Source of the DNA: Deltaproteobacteria bacterium
GTDB lineage: Bacteria > Myxococcota_A > Polyangia > Haliangiales > Haliangiaceae
Assembly: GCA_020630875.1 (NCBI GenBank)
Contig: JAHDIH010000004.1
Location: forward strand, 243,400-307,399
Direction: 5' to 3'
Length of the DNA: 64,000 nucleotides
Each line of letters begins with the position of its first letter. Position 1 is the first letter of the stretch. Positions 3,667 through 63,475 of the stretch are shown here, one piece after another. The translations under genes were made by a program, and so were the position numbers. Below the pieces are notes generated by a model. That model ran no database searches. It worked only from the letters and a program-made list of their open reading frames with translations, and had not been told where the DNA came from.

Positions 3667-3849
3667 ATTTTTCTCACTCTAGAATAGGGTTCGTTTTTCG
3701 CTTCTTTCAAAACGACTAACCTTTTCGGAGATACTATCACAAGTTTGCAGAATCTACGCTCGACAATTTCGCTTAGCTAGATATCTATCTACTTTTATTT
3801 GGAAAACTTTCCTATCGGTCACGAAAATTCGATTGGTAGAACGATGAAG

Positions 3850-4368
3850 TCACTTAACCATATTGAGTCCCCAATTTACACGGAACGTCAGCTGTCCCAT
3901 ACCCCGCCACCGATTGAAAGACACATCGTGTTGACTAATGACGCCGACTCCAAACTCTGCAAGGTTGTCTAGAATTGGCCATCGTGCTTCAGCAGAAGCT
4001 CGTGGTCCCCAAGTAAGGTCAGTGCTAAGGAATCCTCCAACGCCAAAGTCGAAACCAAATTGTTCATGCCTGCCCAGCAAATAGCGTCCCTCAGCGAACC
4101 ACTCTGTGGCTCGCTCGCTTTTTACAAAGTTTGTAGCTCCCCCACCTATGGACCAATGTCCATCAAACTCAAAATTAGGTTGCCAGGTCAGAGCCAACTC
4201 TCCTTCAGTGGTAAGCCCCAAATCTGGTACTGCCTCGGTTGCTGCAACAGCGACTAAAATAATAGTGAACAAAGTGGCAATTCCCCGTTCGAATGACGGC
4301 TTTTTCTCTGCGTTCGCCGAAGATGACAGCGTAACGGAGAACACCACAACAAGAATCAAACCTTTCAT
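3850..4368 (-). CDS. Secreted hypothetical protein, probable beta-barrel
   Basis: 172 residues with a clear Sec signal peptide (MKGLILVVVFSVTLSSSANA). The mature part alternates hydrophobic and polar residues with many Gly and aromatic positions (GGATNF, GFDFGVGGFLS, FGVGVISQHDVSF) and ends in a beta strand (LTFRVNWGLNMVK), which suggests a small outer-membrane barrel. No family is recognised. It sits 69 bp downstream of the malic enzyme gene on the same strand. Confidence 0.6.
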   Translation of the reverse strand: MKGLILVVVFSVTLSSSANAEKKPSFERGIATLFTIILVAVAATEAVPDLGLTTEGELALTWQPNFEFDGHWSIGGGATNFVKSERATEWFAEGRYLLGRHEQFGFDFGVGGFLSTDLTWGPRASAEARWPILDNLAEFGVGVISQHDVSFNRWRGMGQLTFRVNWGLNMVK

Positions 4369-60740: not shown

Positions 60741-60768
60741 TTGGTTTTTAGTCTTGTCGTGGTATAAT
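60741..60768 (+). promoter_or_regulatory. Promoter of the tRNA region
   Basis: TTGGTT (-35) and TATAAT (-10, 60763-60768) are 16 bp apart, just upstream of the sORF and the tRNA cluster. Confidence 0.65.
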
Positions 60769-60787
60769 GGGAATCAAGGAACTAACA

Positions 60788-60949
60788 ATGCAACGAACTT
60801 TTCTCATAGCAAGCTCAATGACTCAGCGCGACCATCGCAATGAGATTAGTGGGAATGTTGCGTTTTCACTCAGTTTATCCGCCACAAGCAATGATTGTGC
60901 GAACGGCCCCGAGCTGAGAAAACCGTATACAGGGGCGGCTATGTTGTAG
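60788..60949 (+). CDS. Small ORF in the tRNA-array leader (53 aa)
   Basis: ATG with AAGGA 8 nt upstream, 53 codons (MQRTFLIASSMTQRD... PYTGAAML), no family match. It lies between the promoter and a strong terminator, so it forms an independent small transcript. The same transcript could be a regulatory RNA with the frame being incidental; a GCCCC/GGGGC pair folds near its 3' end. Confidence 0.4.
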   Translation: MQRTFLIASSMTQRDHRNEISGNVAFSLSLSATSNDCANGPELRKPYTGAAML

Positions 60950-60971
60950 ATTAGATCCAATATCTATCTTT

Positions 60972-61005
60972 AGCCGTCCAAGGATTACCTCGGACGGCTT
61001 TTTTC
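60972..61005 (+). terminator. Strong terminator ahead of the tRNA cluster
   Basis: AGCCGTCC pairs with GGACGGCT around a 12-nt loop, followed by TTTTTT. Confidence 0.85.
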
Positions 61006-61009
61006 GTTT

Positions 61010-61080
61010 GGGGGCACTCCACGGGTTGGTTGCCGCCGCTGTAAACGGCTTGCACGAGAGTTCGAGTCTTTCTGCCCCCA
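61010..61080 (+). tRNA. tRNA-Tyr(GTA), short variable arm
   Basis: Acceptor GGGGGCA/TGCCCCC, anticodon loop CTGTAAA, T-arm GAGAG-TTCGAGT-CTTTC, discriminator A. The variable loop has 5 nt, although bacterial tRNA-Tyr normally has a long variable arm, and the D-arm does not fold canonically. CCA not encoded. Confidence 0.65.
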
Positions 61081-61159
61081 CTACATCGAGCAAAAAAAAA
61101 TACGCGAGTGATCGCGAATGGGAAAGGTGCGCCCTGAAGACACCAGAAAGGAAATGACA

Positions 61160-61210
61160 ATGGAAAATACAAAGAAGAACACAGAGCCCGACAAGAGTTT
61201 GCCTCTGTGA
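61160..61210 (+). CDS. Possible 16-codon ORF before tRNA-Lys
   Basis: ATG with AAAGGA 8 nt upstream encodes MENTKKNTEPDKSLPL and stops inside the first 10 nt of tRNA-Lys. May be a leader peptide or chance. Confidence 0.25.
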   Translation: MENTKKNTEPDKSLPL

Positions 61211-61273
61211 CGCAACTGGTAGCGTACCCGACTTTTAATCGGATAGTTGGGGGTTCGAATCCCTCCAGAGGCA
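61201..61273 (+). tRNA. tRNA-Lys(TTT)
   Basis: Full cloverleaf: acceptor GCCTCTG/CAGAGGC, D-stem ACGC/GCGT, anticodon loop CTTTTAA, T-loop TTCGAAT, discriminator A. 73 nt. CCA not encoded. Confidence 0.9.
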
Positions 61274-61290
61274 CCCAGCCTAAGAAATAT

Positions 61291-61361
61291 TGAGAGGTCG
61301 CCTGGTGGCAGTACAGCTGTCTTTGAAGCAGAAAATGAAGGTTCGATCCCTTCTCTCTCAA
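61291..61361 (+). tRNA. tRNA-Gln(TTG)
   Basis: Acceptor TGAGAGG/TCTCTCA, anticodon loop CTTTGAA, T-arm GAAGG-TTCGATC-CCTTC. The D-arm is short (GCC-TGGT-GGC). CCA follows the discriminator A. Confidence 0.8.
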
Positions 61362-61371
61362 CCACGAAAAA

Positions 61372-61445
61372 GCACTGCAACGTTTGTAATGCAAGTAAGA
61401 CCAGAGGTCGCTCCCTGACGGGACAGCCATACGGCCGCGCGGTGC
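61372..61445 (+). other. tRNA-length cloverleaf-like sequence, no canonical loops
   Basis: GCACTGC and GCGGTGC form a 7-bp stem exactly 74 nt apart end to end; four small hairpins (TTG/CAA, GACC/GGTC, TCCC/GGGA, GCC/GGC) lie inside. No T-loop or anticodon loop is recognisable. Possibly a decayed tRNA. Confidence 0.3.
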
Positions 61446-61583
61446 TCACTAGCTCATTGATAATTGAATAGTAATAAGAAAAATGTGAGTCGAAGCCAAA
61501 ACGACTCACAATATTTCCAACCATGCATAGGCGTCGCCAAAGCGATTGATTTCGAAGCGCGACGCTCGCCAAAGTTGGACAAT

Positions 61584-61655
61584 GCCCTTGTAAGCATCTG
61601 GTGAAGCTAGCCGATTGTCTATCGGTCGAGGTCGGTTCGATTCCGTCCAGGGGCG
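61584..61655 (+). tRNA. tRNA-Asp(GTC)
   Basis: Acceptor GCCCTTG/CAGGGGC, anticodon stem-loop GCCGA-TTGTCTA-TCGGT, T-loop TTCGATT, discriminator G as expected for Asp. 72 nt. Confidence 0.88.
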
Positions 61656-61668
61656 CCTTAGAGTGGTG

Positions 61669-61733
61669 GTCTAAAGTAGTAAAGACGGCCTTGGCAATCG
61701 CGTACCTCAATCGCGTCACTCGCTAGCGTTTCT
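61669..61733 (+). repeat. Spacer repeat, copy 1
   Basis: About 65 bp, containing TCGCGTACCTCAATCG; copy 2 is at 61795-61860. A GTTTCTA/TAGAAAC hairpin follows at 61728-61749. No tRNA was recognised here. Confidence 0.55.
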
Positions 61734-61794
61734 AGCAATAGTTAGAAACCGTTGTGGTTGCAACGAGATGCAACTGGGACTTTAAGAAACGCTC

Positions 61795-61860
61795 GTCTAA
61801 TGCAGTAAAGACAGCTTCGGCAAATCGCGTACCTCAATCGTGGCGTTTCCTATCGTTTCT
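61795..61860 (+). repeat. Spacer repeat, copy 2
   Basis: Imperfect direct copy of 61669-61733 sharing GTCTAA, AGTAAAGAC and TCGCGTACCTCAATCG, and ending in GTTTCT. Confidence 0.55.
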
Positions 61861-61870
61861 CTTTATTTAT

Positions 61871-61944
61871 CCGCGTGTAAGTCAGTCTGGTAGACACCAC
61901 CGCTTGGAACGGTGAAGTCGTAGGTTCAAATCCTATCGCGCGGA
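61871..61944 (+). tRNA. tRNA-Pro(TGG), copy 1
   Basis: Acceptor CCGCGTG/CGCGCGG, anticodon arm CACCG-CTTGGAA-CGGTG, T-arm GTAGG-TTCAAAT-CCTAT, A73, then CCA. 74 nt. Confidence 0.88.
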
Positions 61945-61951
61945 CCAATAT

Positions 61952-62025
61952 CTACGTGTAAGTCAGTCTGGTAGACACCACCGCTTGGAACGGTGAAGCC
62001 GCTGGTTCAAATCCAGCCACGTAGA
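61952..62025 (+). tRNA. tRNA-Pro(TGG), copy 2
   Basis: Same D- and anticodon arms as copy 1, but acceptor CTACGTG/CACGTAG and T-stem GCTGG/CCAGC, with paired changes on both sides. A73, CCA encoded. Confidence 0.88.
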
Positions 62026-62030
62026 CCAAC

Positions 62031-62152
62031 GCTCGTCAGAATCGTCGATTGCGGCGTTAGGCGAGGTCTTGTGACCACCAGGTCACGTCGACAACCTTGG
62101 GCTTCACCCAAGCTCGCCTGCCTTGCACTCGAAGAATTCTTACTTCGCTCGC
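62031..62152 (-). repeat. Palindromic element, copy 1 (inverted)
   Basis: About 120 bp; the reverse of copies 2 and 3. Outer stem AGGCGAG/CTCGCCT encloses two hairpins, CTTGGG-tgaa-GCCCAAG-like and GTGACC-tggt-GGTCAC. Confidence 0.75.
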
Positions 62153-62159
62153 GTTGTAC

Positions 62160-62218
62160 ACTGCGGGTTCGTCGCGAAACGCGACAGGATACTGCGGGTT
62201 CGTCGCGAAACGCGACAG
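62160..62218 (+). repeat. 28-bp direct repeat, two copies
   Basis: Exact 28-bp units at 62160-62187 and 62191-62218, each with a GTCGCG/CGCGAC hairpin, 3 bp apart. Confidence 0.85.
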
Positions 62219-62225
62219 AAAATTT

Positions 62226-62292
62226 GGGAGGCGATCTGGGATCGCTTTGGTCTCCAAAGCCGAATAGCAAAGTTCGATTCTTTGGCCTCCTG
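62226..62292 (+). tRNA. tRNA-Trp(CCA), reduced D-arm
   Basis: Acceptor GGGAGGC/GCCTCCT, anticodon loop CTCCAAA, T-arm CAAAG-TTCGATT-CTTTG, discriminator G as expected for Trp. Only 14 nt lie between acceptor and anticodon stems, so the D-arm is abbreviated; total 67 nt. Confidence 0.7.
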
Positions 62293-62297
62293 CAAAG

Positions 62298-62367
62298 CGC
62301 AACGACCAACGGTATGGACCCGCGTTTCATACGCGCGTGGGCCAAGGTTCGATTCCTTGCGTTGCGA
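62298..62367 (+). tRNA. tRNA-Met(CAT)
   Basis: Acceptor CGCAACG/CGTTGCG, anticodon arm CGCGT-TTCATAC-GCGCG, T-arm CAAGG-TTCGATT-CCTTG, A73. D-region is 16 nt, shorter than usual. Initiator, elongator or lysidine-Ile identity cannot be separated. Confidence 0.8.
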
Positions 62368-62379
62368 CAAATACGAAAT

Positions 62380-62450
62380 GGGACGGTAGCTCAATGGGAG
62401 AGCATTCGGTTTGCACCCGAAAGACGAGGGTTCGACTCCCTTCCGCTCCA
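62380..62450 (+). tRNA. tRNA-Ala(TGC)
   Basis: D-stem GCTC/GAGC, anticodon arm TTCGG-TTTGCAC-CCGAA, T-loop TTCGACT, A73, CCA encoded. One A-C mismatch in the acceptor stem. Confidence 0.88.
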
Positions 62451-62455
62451 CCACT

Positions 62456-62526
62456 GCAGAGGTAGTTCAATGGCAGAACAATTGGGTGCCATCCAGGAAA
62501 TGAGAGTTCAAATCTCTTCCTCTGCA
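62456..62526 (+). tRNA. tRNA-Gly(GCC)
   Basis: Acceptor GCAGAGG/CCTCTGC, D-stem GTTC/GAAC, anticodon loop GTGCCAT, T-loop TTCAAAT, A73. CCA not encoded. Confidence 0.87.
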
Positions 62527-62530
62527 CTAT

Positions 62531-62601
62531 GGCCGCTGCGAGCAAGTGCTTGCTCGGGATTGCAATCCCCGATGTGCCGGGAGCGTTACCCGGAGCGGCT
62601 T
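62531..62601 (+). tRNA. tRNA-Cys(GCA)-like, degenerate T-arm
   Basis: Acceptor GGCCGCT/AGCGGCT, D-stem GAGC/GCTC, anticodon loop TTGCAAT and discriminator T (typical of Cys). The T-arm CCGGG-AGCGTTA-CCCGG lacks the TTC loop. Confidence 0.55.
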
Positions 62602-62609
62602 CCATGATT

Positions 62610-62681
62610 GCGTCGGTAGCTCATCGGTAGAGCATCCGCTTGTTAAGCGGGGGTGAGCGGGTTCGATTCCTGCCTGGCGCG
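62610..62681 (+). tRNA. tRNA-Asn(GTT)
   Basis: Acceptor GCGTCGG/CTGGCGC, D-stem GCTC/GAGC, anticodon loop TTGTTAA, T-arm GCGGG-TTCGATT-CCTGC, discriminator G as expected for Asn. Confidence 0.88.
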
Positions 62682-62693
62682 CCCAAACCAACT

Positions 62694-62766
62694 TCGTCGG
62701 TAGCTCAATGGCAGAGCAAATCCTCGAAATGGGGACTAGATCCAGGTTCAACTCCAGGCCGACTTC
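62694..62766 (+). tRNA. tRNA-Phe(GAA)-like, C33
   Basis: D-stem GCTC/GAGC, anticodon loop TCGAAAT with C at position 33, T-loop TTCAACT. The acceptor pairs over only about five bases. Possibly decayed. Confidence 0.45.
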
Positions 62767-62852
62767 CACGAACCAAATGTCGTGGGAACGCGAACCACGA
62801 ACCAAATGTCGCGGGAACGCGAACCACGAACCAAATGTCGCGGGAACGCGAC
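62766..62852 (+). repeat. 29-bp tandem repeat, three units
   Basis: Units start at 62766, 62795 and 62824 and carry CACGAACCAAATGTCG then GGGAACGCG; unit 1 differs by one base. Confidence 0.88.
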
Positions 62853-62863
62853 GAACAAAACAA

Positions 62864-62982
62864 GCGACGATAGAATTCTACGAATGCAAGGCAGGCAAGC
62901 TTGGGTGAAACCCAAGGCAGTCGACGTGACCTGGTGGTCACGAGACCTCGCCTAACGCCGCAGTCGTAAATTCTACCGAGCG
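62864..62982 (+). repeat. Palindromic element, copy 2
   Basis: Ends in near-inverted repeats (TAGAATTCTACGA and TCGTAAATTCTA). Inside are GGC-AGGC / GCCT-aac-GCC and the hairpins CTTGGGT-gaa-ACCCAAG and GTGACC-tggt-GGTCAC. Confidence 0.78.
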
Positions 62983-62989
62983 CCTCCAT

Positions 62990-63061
62990 TCTCTGGTAGC
63001 TCAATGGCAGAGCCCCCGCTTTATAAGCGTGAGATGTCGGGTTCAATTACCACTCGGAGGA
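62990..63061 (+). tRNA. tRNA-Ile(TAT)
   Basis: Acceptor TCTCTGG/TCGGAGG (several G-T), D-stem GCTC/GAGC, anticodon loop TTTATAA, A73, CCA encoded. The T-stem pairs poorly. A TAT anticodon is rare in bacteria. Confidence 0.6.
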
Positions 63062-63071
63062 CCAAGACTAC

Positions 63072-63142
63072 GCCTCGCTCGCCACCTGGCAGGGCCGCTG
63101 TTTTACATGCAGCAAACGGATGTTCGATTCCTTCGCGAGGTA
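63072..63142 (+). tRNA. tRNA-Val(TAC)
   Basis: Acceptor GCCTCGC/GCGAGGT, anticodon arm GCTGT-TTTACAT-GCAGC, T-loop TTCGATT, A73, CCA encoded. Confidence 0.8.
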
Positions 63143-63188
63143 CCAACCGTCGCTGTCGCGTTAACGCGACGCCACTCCAAGAAACGAA

Positions 63189-63310
63189 GCGACGATAGAT
63201 TTTTTCGAATGCAAGGCAGGAGAGGTTGGGTGGAAACCCAAGGCCGTCGACGTGACCTGGTGGTCACGTGACCTCGGCTAACGCCGCAGTCGGAAATTCT
63301 AGCGAGCGAC
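63189..63310 (+). repeat. Palindromic element, copy 3
   Basis: Same layout as copy 2, with ends TAGATTTTTTCGA and TCGGAAATTCTA and hairpin GTTGGGT-ggaa-ACCCAAG. The outer stem is weaker. Confidence 0.75.
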
Positions 63311-63315
63311 TACAT

Positions 63316-63387
63316 TCGTCAGTATTTCAATGGTTAGAATGACCGCCCGATAAGCGGTTGATGGTGGTTCGACTCCACCCTGACGGA
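63316..63387 (+). tRNA. tRNA-Ile(GAT), C33
   Basis: Acceptor TCGTCAG/CTGACGG, anticodon arm ACCGC-CCGATAA-GCGGT, T-arm GGTGG-TTCGACT-CCACC, A73, CCA encoded. Position 33 is C rather than the near-universal T. Confidence 0.8.
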
Positions 63388-63430
63388 CCAAACAAACTCT
63401 TGCTGCAAAAAGTGGACTCGCTCACGGGCA

Positions 63431-63475
63431 ACTGTGGTCACGACACCTCCCTGTGCGGCTTTGTCGGCAAATTAT
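63431..63475 (+). repeat. Remnant of palindromic element, copy 4
   Basis: GTGGTCACGA...ACCTC and TGTCGGCAAATTAT correspond to the right-hand third of copies 2 and 3. Confidence 0.45.

What the first reader, a model, noticed from the sequence alone, without database searches (positions are those of the whole stretch)
60741..63390. tRNA array of at least 16 genes on one strand
Sixteen tRNA genes and one tRNA-like relic are packed on the plus strand with promoter and terminators in front. Most anticodons occur once (Tyr, Lys, Gln, Asp, Pro x2, Trp, Met, Ala, Gly, Cys, Asn, Phe-like, Ile x2, Val). CCA is encoded in some and absent in others, which suggests genes of different origin. Discriminators mostly match amino acid identity (G in Trp, Asp and Asn, T in Cys), so many may be functional. 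Such arrays are known mainly from phages and integrative elements; no integrase is visible here.
Basis: partly seen in the sequence, partly recalled or inferred. Interest (0 to 1): 0.75.

Follow-up and report, generated by a model that had tools for sequence, protein, structure and literature searches.

The report
Stall-sensing switch for spare tRNA array
This bacterium carries a second, divergent set of about 26 tRNA or tRNA-like genes with a predicted RNA-ligase gene in its middle, and the short leader gene and terminator in front of it would likely switch the set on when translation stalls for lack of charged tRNA; all 13 such leaders compared here contain every amino acid of the tRNAs called behind them, which suggests that such arrays sense the loss of the very tRNAs they supply.

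Summary
The tRNA array is real and larger than reported. It runs past the window end to about 26 tRNA or tRNA-like genes over 8 kb (19 by ARAGORN), covering all 20 amino acids if weak ones count. An Rnl2-type RNA ligase gene lies inside it and a Ro60-like gene two genes on. Where a housekeeping tRNA for the same amino acid was found, identity is 45-72%; two paralogue pairs keep their stems by compensatory changes. No integrase was seen among the genes scanned.

The main find is upstream of the first tRNA: a TATAAT box, a 53-codon ORF (60788-60949), and an intrinsic terminator ending 5 nt before tRNA-Tyr. The ORF's last codons can pair with the terminator's 5' arm, as in ribosome-mediated attenuators. 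Two Bacteroidota arrays and one viral contig with a related ligase inside have this layout; three smaller ligase-containing arrays do not. Leaders before smaller viral arrays are rich in the amino acids of the tRNAs behind them. All 13 leaders compared contain every amino acid of the called array tRNAs.

I propose that stalling switches on a replacement tRNA set plus repair. The switch is predicted, not shown. Four literature searches on leaders or attenuation and tRNA genes listed no such report.

The parts
60763..60768 (+). TATAAT, candidate -10 box of the array promoter
   Evidence: read from the sequence; not listed by the consensus scan
60788..60949 (+). leader ORF, 53 codons, 19 of 20 amino acids (no Trp), preceded by AAGGA; an in-frame ATG at 60767 (60 codons) overlaps the -10 box
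   Evidence: translation not shown
60933..60940 (+). predicted antiterminator strand GGGCGGCT inside the last codons of the leader ORF, pairs with 60972-60979
   Evidence: pair probability 0.98-1.0 in the nascent chain; 9/1000 base shuffles and 5/1000 codon shuffles reach it; z -3.2
60972..61004 (+). intrinsic terminator AGCCGTCC...CGGACGGCT and T-tract; 5 nt before the first tRNA
61010..61081 (+). tRNA-Tyr (GTA), short variable arm
   Evidence: ARAGORN; no Rfam hit; fit
61200..61277 (+). tRNA-Lys (TTT)
   Evidence: 67.5 bits
61291..61361 (+). tRNA-Gln (TTG)
   Evidence: Rfam 36.7 bits
61584..61657 (+). tRNA-Asp (GTC)
61871..61947 (+). tRNA-Pro 1 (TGG)
61952..62028 (+). tRNA-Pro 2 (TGG); differs from Pro 1 mainly by paired changes in acceptor and T stems
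62030..62157 (-). structured intergenic repeat (family R1), inverted copy
62226..62292 (+). tRNA-Trp-like (CCA), short D arm
   Evidence: Rfam 25.6 bits, below cut-off; fit
62298..62368 (+). tRNA-Met (CAT), D arm poorly paired
62380..62453 (+). tRNA-Ala (TGC)
62456..62527 (+). tRNA-Gly (GCC)
62531..62601 (+). tRNA-Cys-like (GCA), T loop AGCGTTA
   Evidence: cloverleaf fit only
62609..62685 (+). tRNA-Asn (GTT)
62694..62766 (+). tRNA-Phe-like (GAA by eye)
   Evidence: Rfam 27.1 bits, below cut-off
62855..62982 (+). structured intergenic repeat (family R1)
62990..63064 (+). tRNA-Ile (TAT)
63072..63145 (+). tRNA-Val (TAC)
63181..63308 (+). structured intergenic repeat (family R1)
63316..63390 (+). 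tRNA-Ile (GAT), C33 in the anticodon loop

Best explanation
The locus is a spare, divergent tRNA set with a predicted Rnl2-type RNA ligase gene inside it, and it is likely kept off by a terminator and predicted to be switched on by ribosome-mediated attenuation. Shown by sequence: TATAAT box, a 53-codon leader ORF using 19 of 20 amino acids, an intrinsic terminator ending 5 nt before the first tRNA, about 26 tRNA or tRNA-like genes over 8 kb, the ligase gene inside and a Ro60-like gene two genes downstream. Predicted by folding: while the ribosome is held back in the leader, its last codons (GGGCGGCT) pair with the 5' arm of the terminator and transcription reads into the array; a ribosome that reaches the stop codon covers that strand and the terminator forms. 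Inferred: loss of a charged tRNA (cleavage by anticodon nucleases or ribotoxins, starvation, antibiotics) stalls the leader ribosome, so replacement tRNAs and the ligase are made when the normal tRNAs fail. Because the array tRNAs are unlike the host's, some may escape the cleavage (untested).
For: (1) Layout: a leader ORF and a terminator lie upstream in all 4 loci seen that have 12 or more ARAGORN tRNAs with the ligase between them (window, L103, L104, viral contig L424), against 4 of 600 random positions, 1 of 21 housekeeping tRNA units and 1 of 64 tRNA units in 7 named phage regions. (2) Switch: pairing of the ORF end with the terminator 5' arm in the nascent chain. (3) Codon match: in all 13 leaders tabulated, every amino acid of the ARAGORN-called array tRNAs is in the leader (window 14/14, L103 12/12, L104 12/12, L424 15/15, L506 6/6, L423 4/4); random protein windows of the same length do so in 235 (L103), 74 (L104), 234 (L424) and 2610 (window) of 20000, joint product over 9 families 3.5e-10. 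Leaders of partial arrays are rich in the array's own amino acids; the true pairing of 5 families is the best of 120. (4) RNA repair: ligase fold nearest T4 Rnl2, Ro60 fold. (5) Selection: compensatory stem changes between Pro 1/2 and Leu-TAG/TAA (alignments, read by eye). (6) Precedent: the Anabaena trn array is silent and induced by translation inhibitors, with rtcB in the same TrcR regulon (PMC10272220, abstract and passages).
Against: No expression data. Three smaller loci with the ligase between tRNAs show no leader: L298 (8 tRNAs), L313 (7) and Proteus phage RP7 (L509, 9), nor does L327 with 18 tRNAs behind the ligase; so 4 of 7 with the ligase inside. The window's own leader is not exceptional for amino-acid diversity alone (2281/20000 windows reach it), and it lacks Trp although a sub-threshold Trp-like gene is in the array. 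The antiterminator is significant by shuffling only in the window; L103, L104 and L424 give 123, 282 and 332 of 1000 base shuffles. The full-length leader folds the terminator, so the switch needs timing. The Leu/Val/Cys leaders could be signal-like peptides and are one homologous family. For the first leader of L496 I counted only the tRNAs up to the next leader; the Phe and Glu tRNAs beyond have no codon in it. Several array tRNAs are weak and may be dead.
Confidence: 0.6

Rival explanations
1. Phage- or element-derived tRNA array kept for codon compensation and expressed constitutively; the terminator belongs to an unrelated small upstream gene or sRNA and the leader ORF is accidental.
For: Phages carry the same ligase family (142 of 50,697 phage records) and tRNA arrays; most ligase-bearing viral loci show no leader, and three with the ligase between tRNAs have none.
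Against: Only 5 nt separate the terminator from tRNA-Tyr and no promoter-like site was listed before 61457; the leader-array amino-acid match across families is not expected.
Confidence: 0.18
2. Decaying relic of an integrated element: many tRNA-like genes are dead and the locus has no present function.
For: Weak or odd tRNAs (Cys-like T loop, Phe-like stems, Trp and Met D arms); the Ro60-like gene was found in none of the 89 other genomes searched.
Against: 22 of 27 best cloverleaf fits have a fully paired acceptor stem (the fit favours pairing) although sequences are far from housekeeping tRNAs; paralogue pairs differ by compensatory changes; open ligase frame with motif residues invariant in 23 aligned sequences.
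Confidence: 0.13
3. The array supplies essential housekeeping tRNAs (Ser, Asp, Gln, Ile) and the leader is a growth-rate or amino-acid attenuator of ordinary kind.
For: Nine array anticodons were not found elsewhere in the draft.
Against: The draft breaks inside tRNA genes (C15 end, C12 start); in two other genomes with such arrays some array anticodons recur outside (4 of L103's and 3 of L104's, among 14 and 19 outside genes read).
Confidence: 0.09

Closest known systems
Anabaena sp. PCC 7120 trn operon (26 tRNA genes, delta megaplasmid)
   Same: silent second tRNA set in a bacterium, induced by translation inhibitors; the RNA ligase gene rtcB is in the same TrcR regulon (PMC10272220, abstract and passages)
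   Different: there a repressor protein (TrcR) and an rtcB gene elsewhere; here a predicted leader-peptide attenuator and an Rnl2-type ligase inside the array
tRNA array units (Tran 2016 as cited by Morgado and Vicente 2018)
   Same: dense tRNA clusters in chromosomes, phages and plasmids
   Different: 19 ARAGORN genes, one short of the 20 in the definition, unless weak genes are counted; the terms leader and promoter do not occur in PMC5966550 (term search)
Leader-peptide attenuators of amino-acid operons (trp, his, ilv, leu; general knowledge)
   Same: promoter, short ORF with regulatory codons, antiterminator overlapping the ORF end, terminator
   Different: the controlled genes are tRNAs, and the codons are those of the encoded tRNAs, up to all 20 amino acids
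Phage T4 Rnl2 and phage RNA repair next to tRNAs; Ro60/Rsr
   Same: ligase and Ro60 folds; a Ro-like protein is annotated inside the tRNA array of Streptomyces phage GiJojo
   Different: here in a bacterial chromosome; no polynucleotide kinase among the Pfam-scanned genes

Membership tests
tRNA array unit | at least 20 tRNA genes at 2 or more per kb (definition read in passages of PMC5966550) | tested here: inconclusive
   19 ARAGORN genes over 8.0 kb, 2.4 per kb; about 26 with weak ones
ribosome-mediated transcription attenuator | intrinsic terminator between promoter and first gene | tested here: met
   60972-61004, first tRNA at 61010; by sequence only
ribosome-mediated transcription attenuator | short leader ORF ending just before the terminator | tested here: met
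   ORF 60788-60949, 22 nt to the terminator; translation not shown
ribosome-mediated transcription attenuator | antiterminator mutually exclusive with the terminator and masked by a ribosome at the stop codon | tested here: met
   folding only; not significant by shuffling in the three other loci
ribosome-mediated transcription attenuator | regulatory codons cognate to the products | tested here: met
   17/18 called anticodons and 14/14 called amino acids in the window, 13 of 13 leaders by amino acid; the sub-threshold Trp gene has no codon
ribosome-mediated transcription attenuator | read-through rises when the leader ribosome stalls | not testable with these tools
   needs a reporter or transcript mapping
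Rnl2 RNA ligase | sequence and fold related to T4 Rnl2, nucleotidyltransferase motifs | tested here: met
   PF09414 9e-12, 2hvq E 6.7e-8, top fold 2hvr; K50, H52, G53, E222, G223, K242, K244 invariant in 23 sequences; motif roles recalled; activity not tested
Ro60/TROVE | TROVE ring plus vWA fold | tested here: met
   PF11443 and PF25043; top 12 PDB hits are Ro60/TROVE at query TM 0.30-0.49, so distant
integrative element | integrase or attachment sites | tested here: inconclusive
   no integrase among 24 ORFs scanned; not every ORF was scanned and attachment sites were not sought

The most novel reading that the evidence does not exclude
A new class of self-referential attenuators: tRNA arrays of bacteria and phages are preceded by leader peptides spelled with the codons of the tRNAs they encode, from a single amino acid up to all 20, so that loss of those charged tRNAs (for example by host anticodon nucleases) itself releases transcription of their replacements and of an RNA-repair ligase. 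The array is a tRNA-damage alarm and its cure in one transcript.
Probability: 0.53. Interest if true: 0.95.

Novelty: new variant of a known kind. Interest (0 to 1): 0.86.

Why it matters
[quoted passage not shown] If arrays are wired to sense the shortage of exactly the tRNAs they carry, the replacement-of-destroyed-tRNA hypothesis becomes directly testable with a reporter, and the leader peptide tells which tRNAs each array guards. It also gives a sequence signature (short ORF, terminator, tRNA) for finding guarded arrays, and a natural sensor of aminoacyl-tRNA status for up to 20 amino acids.

Tried and rejected
Plain relic or plain mobile array: rejected as the main reading for the reasons under rivals. 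CCA mix as a sign of foreign origin: rejected (14 of 29 housekeeping genes). Array as sole source of nine tRNAs: not accepted, because the draft breaks in tRNA genes. YrlA (Y RNA) hits in the array: best 27.1 bits against a cut-off of 69, overlapping tRNAs, not accepted. Ligase as a marker of arrays in general: rejected; of the genomic loci seen only the window, L103 and L104 sit in arrays, none of 9 other same-phylum loci has an ARAGORN tRNA within 1.5 kb, and 57 of 264 viral loci fetched (not deduplicated) have any tRNA. Intergenic repeats as integron attC sites: considered by eye, no fitting box pair (boxes recalled), and the fold is a three-way junction, not one hairpin. Ro60-like gene as a fixed part of the system: not supported; it was not noticed among the ORFs listed for L103, L104 and L424. 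Leader in every phage array: rejected; 1 of 64 units in 7 named phage regions passes and that ORF ends 8 nt before the terminator.

Rows left out of the leader tables: ORFs ending less than 15 nt before the terminator (second ORFs of L423, L472, L506; housekeeping L012; PVP-SE1), L497 (same leader as L493), and five further Leu/Val/Cys-type loci (L472, L409, L444, L457, L483), which are scored. For L496's first leader the array was cut at the second leader. For L104 the first tRNA (Ser-TGA at 2076) was placed by eye; ARAGORN starts at 2171. In one search one leader per family was used (9 of 13); the product assumes independent families, and the protein pools are small (17-186 ORFs).

Odds changed after checking: best reading 0.62 to 0.60, novel case 0.55 to 0.53, rivals 1 and 2 up by 0.01 each, because Proteus phage RP7, L298 and L313 have the ligase between tRNAs and no leader.
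Full report
WHAT IS THERE. Trp and Phe score below the cut-off and Cys rests on a cloverleaf fit. The array continues in L048 (C9:303000-322999; window coordinate = L048 + 59600) with His, Gly-TCC, Leu-GAG, Leu-TAG, Leu-TAA, Ser-TGA and Glu and weak Ser-GCT, Thr-TGT and Arg-ACG. That is 19 ARAGORN genes and about 26 in all over 8 kb, covering all 20 amino acids if the weak ones count. The Leu and Tyr genes have short variable arms, unlike the host's own.

GENES IN AND NEXT TO THE ARRAY. L048:5659-6702, inside the array, is an RNA ligase (PF09414, 9e-12). Its profile hits T4 Rnl2 (2hvq, E 6.7e-8), its model (pLDDT 87) is closest to T4 Rnl2 in the PDB, and residues K50, H52, G53, E222, G223, K242 and K244, which I recall as ligase motif residues, are invariant in 23 aligned sequences. 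L048:10246-11823, two genes beyond the last tRNA, carries DUF2828/DUF7788; its model (pLDDT 81) matches Ro60/TROVE structures in the top 12 PDB hits. It was found in the window's own genome and in none of the 89 other genomes searched; its nearest named proteins are Bacteroidota, 65% identical. Neighbouring genes look chromosomal: SelO, DbpA helicase, VTC, CotH and others by Pfam, two-component genes by eye. No integrase or transposase is among the 24 ORFs scanned in and around the array.

ARE THE tRNAs UNDER SELECTION? For the 19 of 26 array genes with a same-amino-acid tRNA among the 29 housekeeping genes read, the best identity is 45-72%, so they are not recent copies. The paralogues Pro 1/Pro 2 (85%) and Leu-TAG/Leu-TAA (84%) differ mainly by changes that keep acceptor or T stems paired on both sides (alignments, read by eye), which indicates selection for tRNA shape. 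Sixteen of the 25 distinct anticodons recur outside the array. Nine do not, in searches with the Rfam model (150 of 195 candidates scored) and with two T-arm patterns (20 candidate places read, no ARAGORN tRNA). Two contigs break inside tRNA genes (Lys-TTT; Glu-like), so the nine may lie in gaps.

THE LEADER. Upstream of tRNA-Tyr lie TATAAT (60763-60768), AAGGA, an ORF of 53 codons (60788-60949), and a terminator (60972-61004) that ends 5 nt before the tRNA. The ORF uses 19 of 20 amino acids. Its last codons contain GGGCGGCT (60933-60940), the complement, with one G-U pair, of the terminator's 5' arm. In a simulated nascent chain that ends before the 3' arm these pair with probability 0.98-1.0; when the region up to 12 nt past the stop codon is hidden, only the terminator can form. 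Shuffling the ORF bases or codons reaches the observed pairing in 9 and 5 of 1000 trials, and the 70-nt element folds with z = -3.2. When the whole leader is folded at equilibrium the terminator wins, so, as in known attenuators, timing must decide.

THE SAME LAYOUT ELSEWHERE. A scan of genome contigs with the ligase gave 5 relatives. Two of them, L103 (Bacteroidetes MAG CAKZQD010000195.1) and L104 (Flavobacteriales MAG JALEGO010000017.1), have the ligase inside tRNA arrays of 14 and 12 ARAGORN genes. Both have a leader ORF and a terminator upstream (36 and 40 codons; 26 and 30 nt from stop to terminator). L104's 40-residue leader contains all 20 amino acids; 0 of 20000 windows from ORFs of the two contigs do (47 of 20000 against the window genome's ORFs, 36 of 20000 in composition-matched random peptides). 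A 240-kb viral contig (L424) with 21 tRNAs and a related ligase inside has the layout too. The antiterminator is predicted in all four but is significant by shuffling only in the window. Not all ligase-containing arrays have it: L298 (8 tRNAs), L313 (7 tRNAs) and Proteus phage RP7 (L509, 9 tRNAs) have the ligase between tRNAs and no leader by this detector, and L327, with 18 tRNAs just behind the ligase, has none before its first tRNA.

CODON MATCH. A detector for terminator plus short ATG-started ORF was run on 130 distinct tRNA starts in the ligase-bearing loci and found leaders at 17 of them (19 ORFs). Several sit before small arrays and are rich in the amino acids of the tRNAs behind them: L423 (Val, Ala, Asp, Arg) MIFMREDMVFLVDAAVAADSERVRFR; a family of ten (Cys, mostly with Val and Leu) such as L179 MKTSLTNLVLVLCLLVADWVGFAC; L496 second unit (Phe, Glu) MRTLTNIFDFAFFAAEADESFGKSTIVIS; L482 (Gln). 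A 735-kb phage, LR756501 (L506), fetched because its tRNA DNA resembles L179's and not for its leader, has MLFNSNISVKFTPAPAVAFRRGTGTGTGTCVPAGCGFEGMNG (48 nt before its terminator) ahead of Arg, Thr, Val, Ala, Gly and Pro tRNAs; 25 of 41 residues are of these kinds, reached by 0 of 20000 protein windows. In 13 of 13 leaders tabulated, all amino acids of the ARAGORN-called array tRNAs occur, and at the anticodon level L424 has 20/20, L104 12/12, L103 13/14 and the window 17/18. For the first leader of L496 the array was taken up to the second leader; the Phe and Glu tRNAs beyond it have no codon in that leader. The amino acids missing from L424's leader (Glu, Pro) and from L103's (Gly, Val, Trp) are also missing from their called arrays; the window's leader lacks Trp, and its array holds only a sub-threshold Trp-like gene. 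Random protein windows contain all needed amino acids in 0.4% (L104), 1.2% (L103), 1.2% (L424), 13% (window) and 17-72% of cases for five smaller arrays; the product over nine families is 3.5e-10. Among five partial arrays the true leader-array pairing is the best of 120 permutations by codon and by amino acid. For the fraction-of-residues test, 6 of 10 Leu/Val/Cys leaders and L423 are reached by 0 of 20000 windows; L457, L444, L409, L483, L482 and the Phe/Glu leader by 72, 161, 202, 684, 945 and 1162.

CONTROLS. Terminator plus short ORF precedes 4 of 600 random positions, 1 of 21 housekeeping tRNA units of the window's genome and 1 of 64 tRNA units in seven named phage regions; in the last two the ORF ends 5 and 8 nt before the terminator. 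In the first set of viral tRNA units (L424 left out) 8 of 56 have it, seven of them of the Leu/Val/Cys type and one L423. Homologous Leu/Val/Cys leaders are one family, their hydrophobicity could mean a signal-like peptide, and 7 of 10 end in Cys.

HOW IT LIKELY WORKS. Under normal translation the leader ribosome reaches the stop codon, hides the antiterminator strand and the terminator stops transcription. If a charged tRNA is missing, the ribosome stalls in the leader, the antiterminator forms and RNA polymerase reads into the array. The transcript yields replacement tRNAs, unlike the host's and perhaps resistant to the same nuclease, and the ligase, which could reseal cleaved tRNAs. The Ro60-like protein may be a linked quality-control factor, but it was not noticed in the other three arrays. 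Shown: sequence, layout, codon match. Predicted: folds and switch. Inferred: trigger and benefit.

COMPARISON. The closest functional relative is the Anabaena trn operon, silent and induced by translation-targeting antibiotics, whose repressor TrcR also controls rtcB (PMC10272220, abstract and passages). Phage RNA repair with ligases, provisioning of tRNAs and Ro/TROVE is reviewed in PMC7824862 (passages), and evasion of host tRNA nucleases by phage tRNAs is the title claim of PMC10264068 (title and start of abstract in listings; a term search of its main text for promoter, transcription, attenuation and leader found nothing). Term searches for leader found nothing in PMC5966550 and PMC12803027, on tRNA array units. 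Ten literature searches were made. Four combined leader peptide or attenuation with tRNA genes or arrays (96, 105, 129, 130); of the papers they listed (4 of 4, 12 of 322, 12 of 23 and 12 of 77 found) none by title or start of abstract describes leader-peptide control of tRNA arrays. The lists were capped and the library holds open-licence papers only, so this is weak evidence of novelty. Known attenuators (trp, his, ilv, leu) are cited from general knowledge and from the abstract of PMC1183508 in the listing.

Noticed in passing
window 62030-62157 (-), 62855-62982, 63181-63308; L048 and genome-wide: A ~120-bp dispersed element that folds into a long stem with a three-way junction; 22 of 36 predicted pairs show double compensatory changes; 24 matches in the genome (150 of 1293 candidates scored; one pair may be an assembly duplicate), 7 of them in the 8-kb array. 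Array copies often end just before a tRNA. Function unknown.
   Followed up: partly
L104:2500-3450 and 3820-3920: The Flavobacteriales array has its own repeated palindromic segments between tRNAs, unlike those of the window (read by eye).
   Followed up: no
L048:8133-8372: A ~240-nt stretch with acceptor-like ends GCCCCTG/CAGGGGC, a T arm and CCA; Rfam gives only a weak tmRNA match (19.6 bits against 47). Could be a tRNA-tipped RNA, perhaps a Ro60 partner.
   Followed up: partly
L048:4401-4500: A run of 100 N just past the window end, flanked by the same sequence on both sides, in a repetitive Arg/Gln/Lys-rich ORF that starts in the window at 63453: a scaffold gap.
   Followed up: no
G000 contigs C6 and C9: Pattern hits at a constant offset of 156 bases suggest that C6 (222 kb) repeats the start of C9, probably an assembly duplication.
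   Followed up: no
L012 (C11:426891-429962): The housekeeping tRNA-Glu(TTC) is preceded by a Glu-rich 53-codon ORF ending 5 nt before a terminator: possibly the same principle at a single normal tRNA gene.
   Followed up: no
L505:10028-11614 (Streptomyces phage GiJojo): A Ro-like RNA-binding protein is annotated inside a phage tRNA array.
   Followed up: no
L512 (phage DSS3_MAL1): A tRNA array with an annotated peptidyl-tRNA hydrolase in it and a putative nucleotidyltransferase in front.
   Followed up: no
L103:9323-9784: A PF04308 RNase H-like protein lies inside the Bacteroidetes array beside the ligase.
   Followed up: no
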